Shown here in pieces: positions 55,569 to 60,942 of a stretch of DNA of 64,000 bases. Below the pieces are notes generated by a model. It searched no databases. It saw nothing but the letters and a program-made list of their open reading frames with translations, and was not told the DNA's origin. Source of the DNA: Methanomassiliicoccales archaeon LGM-DZ1. GTDB lineage: Archaea; Thermoplasmatota; Thermoplasmata; Methanomassiliicoccales; Methanomethylophilaceae. A program made the translations under genes and the position numbers. Where the stretch lies: assembly GCA_030168595.1 (NCBI GenBank), contig CP115556.1, forward strand, positions 992,001-1,056,000, written 5' to 3'. Numbering within the stretch: position 1 is the stretch's first letter; each line of letters opens with the position of its first letter.

Positions 55569-56369
55569 ATGGGGATATCTTTGGCAGGATCGTGCACAGT
55601 AGTCATCCCGACATACAACGAGAAAGGGAACGTCGTGAAGATGGCAGAGGCCATCAGGAAGGCGTATCCGGAATTCAAGATCCTGTTCATGGATGACAAC
55701 TCCGATGACGGCACCATAGATCTGGTCAGGGGCCTGAACGACCCCCTGACCGAGATCCGGCCCAGGAAATAGCCCAGAGGGCTTGCGGCCTCGGTAATGG
55801 AGGGGTTCTATCTCGCCGACACCGATTACGCCCTCTGCATGGACTGCGATTTCCAGCATCCCGTAGAGGTCCTGAAGGACATCGTCAGCGAGATGGACAA
55901 AGGCGCGGACCTCTGTGTCGGAGTGAGGAACAGCAGGATGTCCATGGGATTCGTCCGTGCGTTCGGTTCCGAGGCCGTGGAGGCCTTCTGCAAGATCTTC
56001 TTCCGCATCCACGGGAAGCAGACGACCAAGGACATGATGTCCGGCCTGTTCGCTGTCCGCTGCAGCGAGTTCCATGATGTCATCGCAGGATGCTGGGACA
56101 AGTTCGAGTACAGGGGCTGGAAGGTTCTCATGGACCTCATGAAGTACGAGACCCACGACGTGAAGGTCGCCTATGTCAGGTATGATTTCGGCAAGCGGGC
56201 CGAGGGAGATTCGCACCTGAACCCCAAGGTCGCGGTCATGACCCTGCATCAGCTGTGGGGCTTCGGGAAATGGTGCTCGCGCATCCTCGCCAGGCTGTAC
56301 CGCATCGATTATTACGAGATGTACCCGGACGAGGCCAAAGAGAAGAAGAAGACCGGCAAGAAAAAGTGA
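55569..56369 (+). CDS. GT2 (DPM1-like) glycosyltransferase with in-frame TAG (pyrrolysine candidate or nonsense mutation)
   Basis: One reading frame of 266 codons is interrupted only by TAG at 55770-55772 (codon 68). Before it: CTVVIPTYNEKGNVVKMAEAI and LFMDDNSDDGTI. After it, in the same frame: RGLAASVMEGF, CMDCDFQHPVEVL (the metal-site Asp) and DMMSGLFAVR. These are the consecutive motifs of dolichol-phosphate-mannose synthase-type enzymes, so TAG lies inside one domain, between RPRK and PRGLA. In Methanomassiliicoccales TAG can be read as pyrrolysine. The C-terminus is Lys-rich, with no membrane anchor. Leaderless. Confidence 0.7.
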
Positions 56370-57803: not shown

Positions 57804-58904
57804 TTAAGGCATCGTCCTATTTACTATGTGCGCGCGATTAATCGCGTTATCTGTTCGGTGCCGTCCGCCGACGTTCCCCAGGATCTCGTCCGCGGCATCG
57901 GCGAAGGTGAAAGTGCCAGATACGCGGATGCAGCGCATCCCGAGCCTCCTGCCGAACTCCATGTCCCCGTCGCTGTCCCCGACCATCCAGCACTTGGACG
58001 GATCGAGGCCGAGGTCCGAAACGGCCCGCAGGCCCATCCCGGTCGCCGGCTTGCGGCAGGAGCAGTTCTCGTCAGGGCGGTGGGGGCAGAAGTAGACCGC
58101 ATCGATGCGGCCGCCCGACGATTCCGATATCTGCCTCATGAGCTCGGCGTTCACCGCTTCCATGTCCTCGACGGTGAACATGCCGCGCCCGATGCCGGAT
58201 TGGTTGGTCACCATCACTACGGGGAGGCCGGCGTCGTTGAGCCTCCTCACCGCGGCCGGAACCCACGGATAGACGTGCATCTTCGCCGGGTCGCCGTTGT
58301 GGGGGACGTCCGGGCAGAGGGTGTCGTCCCTGTCTACGAGGACCGCCGCTCGCCCGAACATCTTCTTCTCGACGATCCCGCACATGATGTGGCAGGCGGC
58401 CAGGTAGCCTTCCTGGATATGCGCCGTGTCGGTGCTGGGTATGATGACCGCTACGTCGGCGATGTCCTTGAGCTTCCCGCCGGGGCCGGTGAAGGAGAGG
58501 GTCCTGCTGCCGAGCTCCTTGGCCCTCTCGAGGGCGAGGATGACGTTCTTCGAGTTGCCGGACGTCGACATGCCGACGACGGCGTCGCCGGGCCTGGCGA
58601 ACGCCTCGACCTGCCTCTTGAAGACGATGTCGTAGCTGTAGTCGTTGCCGATCGCGGTGACCGGTGCGATGTTGGACAGGCATACCCCCGCCATGGCAGG
58701 GCGCTCCATCTTGTACCTGCCGGACAGCTCAGCGGCGATGTGCTGGGCATCGGCGGAGGACCCGCCGTTGCCCATGAAGATCGCCTGGCCCTTGCCTTTC
58801 AGCGCTTCGTAGACCAGCTCCGCCGCGGCCTCGATCTGCCTTGGGTCTATGCCCAGGATGGCCTCGGAGCTCTTCCTCAGCTCTTCGACGATACCGTCAG
58901 TCAT
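57804..58904 (-). CDS. Fused sedoheptulose-7-phosphate isomerase (GmhA) and heptose-1,7-bisphosphate phosphatase (GmhB)
   Basis: A 366-residue two-domain protein. Residues 1-185 are a GmhA-type SIS domain (FMGNGGSSADAQHIAAELSGRY; SGNSKNVILAL). Residues 186-366 are a GmhB-type HAD phosphatase with D-x-D-x-T (VLVDRDDTL), the GmhB zinc loop (CPHRPDENCSCRKP) and motif IV VGDSDGDMEFG. The two catalyse the first and third steps of nucleotide-heptose synthesis and are usually separate. The ATG overlaps the heptose kinase gene by eight bases. Confidence 0.92.
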   Translation of the reverse strand: MTDGIVEELRKSSEAILGIDPRQIEAAAELVYEALKGKGQAIFMGNGGSSADAQHIAAELSGRYKMERPAMAGVCLSNIAPVTAIGNDYSYDIVFKRQVEAFARPGDAVVGMSTSGNSKNVILALERAKELGSRTLSFTGPGGKLKDIADVAVIIPSTDTAHIQEGYLAACHIMCGIVEKKMFGRAAVLVDRDDTLCPDVPHNGDPAKMHVYPWVPAAVRRLNDAGLPVVMVTNQSGIGRGMFTVEDMEAVNAELMRQISESSGGRIDAVYFCPHRPDENCSCRKPATGMGLRAVSDLGLDPSKCWMVGDSDGDMEFGRRLGMRCIRVSGTFTFADAADEILGNVGGRHRTDNAINRAHIVNRTMP

Positions 58905-59910
58905 ATCTGCTTCTCCATGAGATCACGCCCTCGGGCTCGAACTGGAAGTCGGTGACATCGGCGCCCGCCTTGGCAAGGGCCTTCGATACCTGGGGCTTCT
59001 TATCGTACTTCGTGACGAAGTACATGAACCCTCCTCCTCCGGCTCCCGAGACCTTCCCGCCGATGGCCCCCGCTTTGATGGCAGTGTCATAGAGGCTGTC
59101 GATCTCCGGGTTGGAGACCTTGTCGGAGAACATCTTCTTGTACTGCCAGGACTCGCCGAGGAGATTGCCCACCTCGTCGATGTCGCCGTGCCTGAGCGCG
59201 GAGCGCATCCTTATGGCGATGTCCTTGGCCTTGTCTAAGGCCGCGTCGTTCTTGCCCTCTTTGTACGATTTGATCTGGGTATCGATGACTGCGGCGGAAT
59301 CGTGGGTCATGCCGGTGAAGCACATGACCGAACGGCACTGGAGCTCGTAGATTATGTCCTGCGGGATCTTGGCGGGGAGGACCGCCACCCCTCCGCTGTC
59401 GAACCTCAGGGAGTTGAAGCCGCCGAAGACTGCCGCGTACTGGTCCTGCTTGCCCCCTTTGAGGCCTATGACCTCTCTCTCCAGGTGGTATGCCAGGGCC
59501 GCCATCTCGAGCTTGGACATGTCGACGTCCCGCCAGTTGGCGATGGCCCCGATCATCGAGACAATCATGGTCGACGACCCTCCTAGACCGGACCCGGCGG
59601 GGACGTCGGAACGGATGCTCATGTCGAACCCTTCGGTCACGCCGAAATGGTTGGTCACGGCCTTGATAAGGTCCATGTTCCCGTCCAGAGGGAGCGGTCC
59701 GTCGCCGAGGGGGGCCTTGTAGCGGCCGTAGTACTCGGAGTTGACCGTCATGGTGTTGTCCTTCCTCGGCTTCAGCGTGCTGTACGCATACTTGTTGATG
59801 GTGGTGTTGAAGACGTAGCCTCCCTTCTCCGAGGCATAGGGCTCAACATCGGTCCCGCCTCCAGCCAGGCCTATCCTGAGGGGCGCCCTGGACCTGATGA
59901 TCTCTACCAT
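58897..59910 (-). CDS. GHMP kinase, D-glycero-D-manno-heptose 7-phosphate kinase (HddA-like)
   Basis: A 337-residue GHMP-family sugar kinase: APLRIGLAGGGTDVEPYASEKGG at the start, the ATP loop DVPAGSGLGGSSTM near residue 105 and GKVSGAGGGGFMYF near the end. This N-terminus is typical of HddA, which makes heptose-1,7-bisphosphate. The immediate linkage to GmhA/GmhB and to a nucleotidyltransferase makes the assignment strong. It starts one base before the end of the next upstream gene. Confidence 0.9.
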   Translation of the reverse strand: MVEIIRSRAPLRIGLAGGGTDVEPYASEKGGYVFNTTINKYAYSTLKPRKDNTMTVNSEYYGRYKAPLGDGPLPLDGNMDLIKAVTNHFGVTEGFDMSIRSDVPAGSGLGGSSTMIVSMIGAIANWRDVDMSKLEMAALAYHLEREVIGLKGGKQDQYAAVFGGFNSLRFDSGGVAVLPAKIPQDIIYELQCRSVMCFTGMTHDSAAVIDTQIKSYKEGKNDAALDKAKDIAIRMRSALRHGDIDEVGNLLGESWQYKKMFSDKVSNPEIDSLYDTAIKAGAIGGKVSGAGGGGFMYFVTKYDKKPQVSKALAKAGADVTDFQFEPEGVISWRSRYD

Positions 59911-60942
59911 TCACTCCGACCGTCCTGTGACTTTCTCGTTCTCTCCGACCACAGTGCCGTCGCCGAGGACGGCGTCGGTGACGACGCAGCCCCGGCCGAG
60001 GGTGCAGCCCTCGCCGATGACGGAACGCTCGATATGCGCCCCGTCAGCGCGGCAACCTTTCATCAGCAATGTGCCAGATATGTACGAATCGTTGATAGTG
60101 CATCCCTTGCTTATAACAGATTCGCAGACTTCCGAACGTCTTAGGAAGGCATCATCGCCTATATAGAACCTGCCGGAGATCTTCGATCCGCTCACCCTGC
60201 TCTCCCACCCCGGCGCCGGATGCACCCTGCCGGCCATCTCGAGGTTCATCCTTATGAGGTCGGCCGGGACGCCGATGTCGGTCCACGGGCCCGGGGAGAC
60301 GTAACCTGTCAGGCGCTCGCCGTGCGAGAGCAGGAGGGGGAACAGGTCCTTGGAAAAATCGAAGAACGTGCGCGGCGGGACGTACCCCAGCACCCGGCGC
60401 TGGGCGATGTACACCCCGGTGTTCACCAGGTCGGAGATCTCCTCCCCCGGGCGGGGCTTGTCCTGGAACTCCGCGATCCTCCCGTCGGCGTCCGTGCGGA
60501 CGACCCCGTACCTGCTCGGATCGCTGACCTTGGAGAGGGACACCGTCGCCGCCGCGCCTGATGAGAAATGCGCATCCTCCATAGCGAGGATGTCGACCGA
60601 GGTCAGCGTATCCCCGTTGGCAGCGGCGAAGACCGGGTCCAGGCGGTCCTCCAGCAGTTTCAGCGCCCCTCCGGTGCCCATGGGCGACTCTTCATCGGAA
60701 TAGGTCAGCTCCACGCCCATGTCGGACCCGTCCCCGACGGCCGCCGCCAGCAGGTCGGACTTGTAGCCGCAGGCCATTATGACCTCGCGCACGCCGGCAG
60801 AGGCCAGGGAACCGATGAGGTACTTTATGAAGGGCCTGTCGAGGATCGGCATGGCAGGCTTGGGGCGTGTGAGCGTCAGCGGCAGGAGGCGCGTCCCCTT
60901 CCCTCCGACGAGGACGACGGCCTGCTTCACTCTCGGGGCCAT
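59911..60942 (-). CDS. Sugar-phosphate nucleotidyltransferase with left-handed beta-helix (HddC-like)
   Basis: A 343-residue enzyme: an N-terminal NTP-transferase domain (VVLVGGKGTRLLPLTLTRPKPAMPILD) and a C-terminal hexapeptide-repeat beta-helix (about residues 250-335), a longer layout than classical HddC. By position it should add GMP to heptose-1-phosphate, giving GDP-D-glycero-alpha-D-manno-heptose; a mannose-1-phosphate guanylyltransferase role is the alternative. First of three tightly packed heptose genes. Confidence 0.82.
   Translation of the reverse strand: MAPRVKQAVVLVGGKGTRLLPLTLTRPKPAMPILDRPFIKYLIGSLASAGVREVIMACGYKSDLLAAAVGDGSDMGVELTYSDEESPMGTGGALKLLEDRLDPVFAAANGDTLTSVDILAMEDAHFSSGAAATVSLSKVSDPSRYGVVRTDADGRIAEFQDKPRPGEEISDLVNTGVYIAQRRVLGYVPPRTFFDFSKDLFPLLLSHGERLTGYVSPGPWTDIGVPADLIRMNLEMAGRVHPAPGWESRVSGSKISGRFYIGDDAFLRRSEVCESVISKGCTINDSYISGTLLMKGCRADGAHIERSVIGEGCTLGRGCVVTDAVLGDGTVVGENEKVTGRSE

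What the first reader, a model, noticed from the sequence alone, without database searches (positions are those of the whole stretch)
55569..56369. In-frame amber codon inside a glycosyltransferase: possible pyrrolysine protein outside methylamine metabolism
Codons 1-67 and 69-266 of one frame together give the uninterrupted motif series of a DPM1-type GT2. The only break is TAG at 55770, between RPRK and PRGLA, with no frameshift. In pyrrolysine-using Methanomassiliicoccales this could be read as Pyl, giving a Pyl-containing surface-glycan enzyme. Otherwise it is a fresh nonsense mutation.
Basis: partly seen in the sequence, partly recalled or inferred. Interest (0 to 1): 0.75.

Follow-up and report, generated by a model that had tools for sequence, protein, structure and literature searches.

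The report
Pyrrolysine in a methanogen glycosyltransferase gene
A methanogen gene for a sugar-lipid enzyme is interrupted by a TAG codon that is almost certainly read as the rare amino acid pyrrolysine: the same TAG is kept in four species and falls in the enzyme's nucleotide-binding loop, although pyrrolysine in this enzyme type was already predicted for a relative in 2014.

Summary
In detail: one in-frame TAG (55770-55772, codon 68) interrupts a 266-codon GT2 gene. The pyrrolysine (Pyl) reading is well supported. The genome carries tRNA-Pyl, pylS, pylC, pylD and pylB. In a 404-kb sample (23% of the genome) TAG ends only 9 of 329 predicted genes, and five of those nine continue in frame as one recognisable protein. 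The same codon is TAG in four species (69-88% protein identity to the window copy). Both halves are under purifying selection, and the codons right after TAG vary only synonymously. This excludes a fresh nonsense mutation and argues against a split gene. The TAG copies form one clade; two other positions in the same family gained TAG separately. Only the site-A clade has a loop one codon shorter. By alignment with Pyrococcus furiosus DPM synthase, Pyl68 falls on Lys65 in the guanine-binding loop.

Novelty is limited. Borrel et al. 2014 listed a DPM-synthase-like GT2 among predicted Pyl proteins of Ca. M. alvus, and ISO4-H5 was reported with 46 amber-containing genes. New here: conservation and selection across species, three TAG sites, the loop position. 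Pyl incorporation is inferred, not shown. A dedicated role for Pyl here is possible but unlikely, since the sites differ between lineages.

The parts
55569..56369 (+). GT2 gene of DPM-synthase type, 266 codons with one internal TAG, ending in TGA
55569..55769 (+). Codons 1-67 before the TAG (contains VIPTYNE and MDDNSDDGT)
   Evidence: purifying selection
55770..55772 (+). In-frame TAG, codon 68, read as pyrrolysine (site A)
   Evidence: TAG in four species
55773..56369 (+). Codons 69-266 after the TAG plus TGA stop (contains DCDFQH and KDMMSGLF)
   Evidence: purifying selection
55764..55784 (+). Beta3-alpha3 loop R66-K-Pyl-P-R-G-L72, equivalent to the guanine-binding loop of P. furiosus DPMS with its anchoring Arg63; one codon shorter than in TAG-free relatives
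55842..55859 (+). DCDFQH motif (metal and donor binding; DADLQH in PfDPMS)
55581..55583 (+). TTG, possible true start codon by alignment with relatives
55797..55799 (+). ATG, codon 77, the only plausible restart in the split-gene rival

Best explanation
The TAG is a sense codon for pyrrolysine. A CUA-anticodon tRNA-Pyl, charged by the genome's PylS with Pyl made by PylBCD, decodes it and yields one full-length GT-A fold glycosyltransferase of the polyprenyl-phosphate sugar synthase (DPM1-like) type. TAG is almost unused as a terminator in this genome, so no special read-through signal need be assumed. The TAG arose once in the ancestor of four species, on the same branch as the loss of one codon in the nucleotide-binding beta3-alpha3 loop. 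Shown: the DNA, the machinery genes, TAG depletion at gene ends, conservation, selection and the modelled fold. Inferred: actual Pyl incorporation, the substrates, and that Pyl here is mainly a tolerated lysine-like residue rather than a catalytic one.
For: PylS over cut-off, PylB, PylC, PylD, tRNA-Pyl with CUA anticodon before pylS and conserved in relatives. TAG ends 9 of 329 sampled genes against 20% of stop trinucleotides; five of the nine continue as one protein, including MttB and an MtbB-type gene, the known Pyl proteins. Same-codon TAG in four species, one clade. pN/pS 0.15-0.37 after the TAG in all six pairs, neutrality rejected at 1e-7 to 1e-14. The R-G-L-A-A-S codons right after TAG differ only synonymously. 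Confident full-length GT-A model, best match PfDPMS.
Against: No protein-level evidence. Most homologues have no TAG. The gene in G012 has a one-base frameshift near its 3' end, which could be a sequencing error or decay in that strain. Other CUA tRNAs were not sought in the whole genome.
Confidence: 0.9

Rival explanations
1. Nonsense mutation or sequencing error: the gene is a recent pseudogene or the TAG is not real.
For: A single stop in an otherwise intact frame; G012 also has a 3' frameshift.
Against: TAG at the same codon in four species assembled separately, with purifying selection on both halves in every pair.
Confidence: 0.02
2. Split gene: TAG is a true stop and two polypeptides are made, codons 1-67 and a restart at ATG 55797 (190 residues), which may associate.
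For: A 190-codon ORF begins at ATG 55797; all four TAG copies have Met there.
Against: Codons between TAG and the ATG keep R-G-L-A-A-S with only synonymous differences, so they are translated. Several TAG-free relatives also have Met there. No Shine-Dalgarno-like run stands just before that ATG in the sequence. TAG is otherwise almost absent as a stop.
Confidence: 0.04
3. TAG is read as a standard amino acid by another suppressor tRNA or by near-cognate misreading.
For: The sense code would look the same in DNA; relatives have Pro, Glu, Asp or Ala around this place.
Against: A dedicated tRNA-Pyl and PylS are present and TAG is depleted as a stop.
Confidence: 0.04
4. Special-role version of the Pyl reading: Pyl68 is positively selected to tune nucleotide binding in the shortened loop.
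For: Loop position opposite Lys65 of PfDPMS; the shorter loop occurs only in the TAG clade; this TAG is older than the one in TiaS, which only the closest pair shares.
Against: Other lineages carry TAG at two other places of the same protein and most have none. Branch lengths in the clade sum to about 0.8 changes per site, so by my estimate an average site would stay unchanged about 40% of the time. The deletion and the TAG are one coincidence.
Confidence: 0.15

Closest known systems
Predicted Pyl proteins of Ca. Methanomethylophilus alvus, including AGI84833.1, 'DPM synthase like/GT2', 253 aa (Borrel et al. 2014, PMC4153887 Table 7)
   Same: Same enzyme type, same order of methanogens, in-frame TAG read through in silico, very low TAG stop use (1.6%). 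The length fits: the UBA78 copy counted from its Met is also 253 residues (my count, 28 coordinates).
   Different: Different genome. Whether the TAG is at the same codon could not be checked because the M. alvus gene was not found in the collections. That paper tested neither conservation across species nor selection.
ISO4-H5 amber-containing genes (PMC5011839)
   Same: 46 genes with in-frame amber, many outside methylamine metabolism.
   Different: The genome whose size fits ISO4-H5 (G013, 1,937,883 bases) has no TAG in its GT2 copy.
MttB/MtbB/MtmB methylamine methyltransferases
   Same: In-frame TAG read as Pyl by the same machinery; two such genes lie near the pyl cluster here.
   Different: There Pyl is part of the catalytic mechanism and always at the same place; here the position varies between lineages and most homologues lack it.
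Pyrococcus furiosus dolichylphosphate mannose synthase (5mlz, 5mm0, 5mm1; PMC5526996)
   Same: GT-A fold, matching donor, metal and acceptor-phosphate residues.
   Different: No Pyl; has four transmembrane helices that the window protein lacks; Lys208 of the acceptor loop is His216 here.

Membership tests
Pyrrolysine-containing protein | Genome encodes tRNA-Pyl, PylS and PylBCD | tested here: met
Pyrrolysine-containing protein | In-frame TAG within one conserved domain | tested here: met
   PF00535 spans codon 68
Pyrrolysine-containing protein | TAG position conserved in relatives with the downstream part under selection | tested here: met
   four species
Pyrrolysine-containing protein | Pyl detected in the protein | not testable with these tools
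   needs mass spectrometry
DPM synthase (GT2) | GT-A fold and closest match to DPMS | tested here: met
   Foldseek 5mlz E 1.8e-16, TM 0.76; hmmsearch 2.8e-35
DPM synthase (GT2) | DxD-x-Q-H motif and Dol-P phosphate residues (Arg117, Arg131, Ser135, Lys178) | tested here: met
   D92, D94, Q96, H97, R120, R130, S134, K185 by alignment
DPM synthase (GT2) | Acceptor loop Arg202 and Lys208 | tested here: inconclusive
   Arg matched by R210, Lys replaced by His216
DPM synthase (GT2) | Curated equivalog model reached | tested here: not met
   no NCBIfam equivalog over its cut-off
DPM synthase (GT2) | Uses GDP-mannose and dolichyl phosphate | not testable with these tools
   needs an enzyme assay

The most novel reading that the evidence does not exclude
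Pyrrolysine in the nucleotide-binding loop of a DPM1-like glycosyltransferase is functionally selected: it takes the place of the loop lysine, came together with a codon deletion, and tunes donor binding, so that surface-glycan synthesis depends on Pyl supply.
Probability: 0.15. Interest if true: 0.75.

Novelty: new member of a known kind. Interest (0 to 1): 0.42.

Why it matters
Few Pyl proteins outside methylamine metabolism have evidence beyond an interrupted gene. Here one TAG has been kept through speciation under purifying selection and maps to a known functional loop, which makes it a good test of whether methanogens with a nearly reassigned TAG merely tolerate pyrrolysine or use it. 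It also means that automatic annotation will truncate or split this enzyme in several species.

Tried and rejected
Rfam found no RNA family at the pylS locus and ARAGORN missed tRNA-Pyl, so it was identified by sequence and conservation; my pattern found it in 7 of 9 relatives' stretches. A longest-ORF survey of stop use was misled by antisense ORFs in this 61% GC DNA and was replaced by a hexamer model (one search timed out). One of its six 'continuing' TAG genes (L062) was rejected because the downstream part looks like a separate ribosomal-protein gene. A control on TGA and TAA ends is confounded by neighbouring same-frame genes and is not used as proof. 'Only TAG occurs inside this family' is weak alone, since 57 of 94 single-base routes to a stop in this gene give TAG. 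RNA folding after the TAG gave no consistent signal across copies (z -2.3, -0.8, -1.2), so no PYLIS-like element is claimed. The M. alvus copy was not found. A paper I recall on archaea reading all TAG codons as Pyl is not held.

Full report
WHAT IS THERE. The frame 55569-56369 (+) is a GT2 gene with a single TAG at codon 68 and a TGA end. Read through, the Pfam GT2 domain spans the TAG (residues 10-163). The window's genome is one contig of 1,768,094 bases, with the window at 992001-1056000. The family search gives its nearest held relative as G012, whose contig is that of Candidatus Methanomethylophilus sp. 1R26.

MACHINERY. PylS lies at contig 1703933-1704619 (268 bits, cut-off 178). PylC follows it (331 bits, cut-off 248), then PylD (188 bits, cut-off 150). 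PylB is elsewhere, at 663176-664183 (421 bits, cut-off 348). Just before pylS lies a 71-base tRNA-Pyl with CUA anticodon (L001:1265-1335). It was found before pylS in seven of nine relatives examined, and a D-stem pair changes together between species (A-T, G-C, C-G; read). PylS was present in all 20 relatives tested, whether or not their GT2 has a TAG.

TAG IN THIS GENOME. In a 404-kb sample (the window plus 17 stretches) a hexamer gene model predicts 329 genes, ending in TGA 295, TAA 25 and TAG 9 times. TAG is 20% of all stop trinucleotides in that DNA but 3% of apparent ends. Five of the nine TAG 'ends' continue as one recognisable protein: this GT2, MttB (687 bits), an MtbB-type gene beside the pyl cluster (assigned from context, as NCBIfam gave no match), a TetR-type regulator and TiaS. 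A sixth (L062) looks like a separate downstream gene; the other three score weakly. So TAG is close to a plain sense codon here, as described for Ca. M. alvus, where 1.6% of genes end in TAG (PMC4153887).

CONSERVATION. Of 102 genomes of the family, 85 have a match to the protein. Codon 68 is TAG in four: the window genome, G012 (88%), G015 (72%, UBA78) and G011 (69%). All six pairs of these show purifying selection on both sides: pN/pS 0.12-0.40 upstream and 0.15-0.37 downstream, with neutrality rejected downstream at 1e-7 to 1e-14. The codons R-G-L-A-A-S right after the TAG differ between species only synonymously, so this stretch is translated; that argues against a restart at ATG 55797. 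The four TAG copies form one clade (99/92), sister to a TAG-free copy (L075, G016).

OTHER TAG SITES IN THE SAME PROTEIN. In four other species of two genera (UBA328 and three Methanoplasma) a TAG stands at the place of window codon 32 (IRx-TAG-YP), again one clade (94/93). In one more genome (G062) it stands at the place of codon 37. So the family gained TAG at least three times at three positions. For comparison, the TAG in TiaS is shared only by the window genome and G012 and is absent in the other six species with a match.

WHERE THE RESIDUE SITS. The AlphaFold model, with K standing in for Pyl, is confident (mean pLDDT 89, pTM 0.87). The best fold matches are the P. furiosus DPM synthase entries (5mlz, E 1.8e-16, TM 0.76). 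The direct alignment places window R66 on Arg63 and codon 68 on Lys65 (numbering converted with Glu12 of the paper as anchor). In that enzyme Arg63 secures the guanine-binding loop, residues 64-69, and Gly68 and Leu69 contact the base (PMC5526996). The distance from this Arg to the Gly is 5 in the TAG copies and 6 in all TAG-free copies of the order that were aligned, so a codon was lost on the branch that gained the TAG. The other two TAG sites lie at the end of the first helix and the start of the second strand of the model.

FUNCTION. The donor, metal and acceptor-phosphate residues of PfDPMS are matched by D92, D94, Q96, H97, R120, R130, S134, K185 and R210; Lys208 is replaced by His216. 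The protein is most likely a polyprenyl-phosphate sugar synthase using a GDP sugar; this is inferred. Nearby genes include a GT87-like glycosyltransferase, a GmhA-GmhB-like fusion, an HddA-like kinase and a guanylyltransferase-like protein, which fits a surface-glycan setting but does not fix the substrate.

VERDICT. Pyl decoding of this codon is the best explanation (0.9). It is a new member of a known kind: Borrel 2014 Table 7 already lists a DPM-synthase-like GT2 as a predicted Pyl protein in Ca. M. alvus, and ISO4-H5 was reported with 46 amber-containing genes (PMC5011839). From memory only, unchecked because the paper is not held, there is also a recent report of archaea that read all TAG codons as Pyl. 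What is added here is conservation and selection across species, repeated gain at different sites, and the position in a nucleotide-binding loop. Different positions in different lineages suggest that Pyl is tolerated rather than required; a special role at site A is not excluded (0.15).

Noticed in passing
L065:15726-17063 (contig 1115726-1117063): TiaS, the tRNA(Ile2) agmatidine synthetase, has an in-frame TAG at codon 69 in the window genome and in G012 only; six other species of the genus have none.
   Followed up: partly
L063:12751-13266: A TetR-type regulator gene with an in-frame TAG at codon 79.
   Followed up: no
L028, L034, L035, L036, L037: Independent in-frame TAGs at two other positions of the same GT2 family (sites B and C) in other genera.
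   Followed up: partly
window 57804-60942 (-): GmhA-GmhB-like fusion, HddA-like heptose kinase and a guanylyltransferase-like protein side by side, suggesting GDP-heptose-type sugar synthesis in an archaeon.
   Followed up: partly
L073:780-960 (1R26): The 1R26 copy of the GT2 lacks one base near its 3' end relative to the window, giving a frameshift.
   Followed up: partly
G049, G053, G054: Three near-complete genomes of another genus in the family have no GT2 (PF00535) match at all.
   Followed up: no
L055:16292-17329 (-): A gene with a TAG 12 codons before a TGA: either one of the few real TAG stops or a Pyl near the C-terminus.
   Followed up: no
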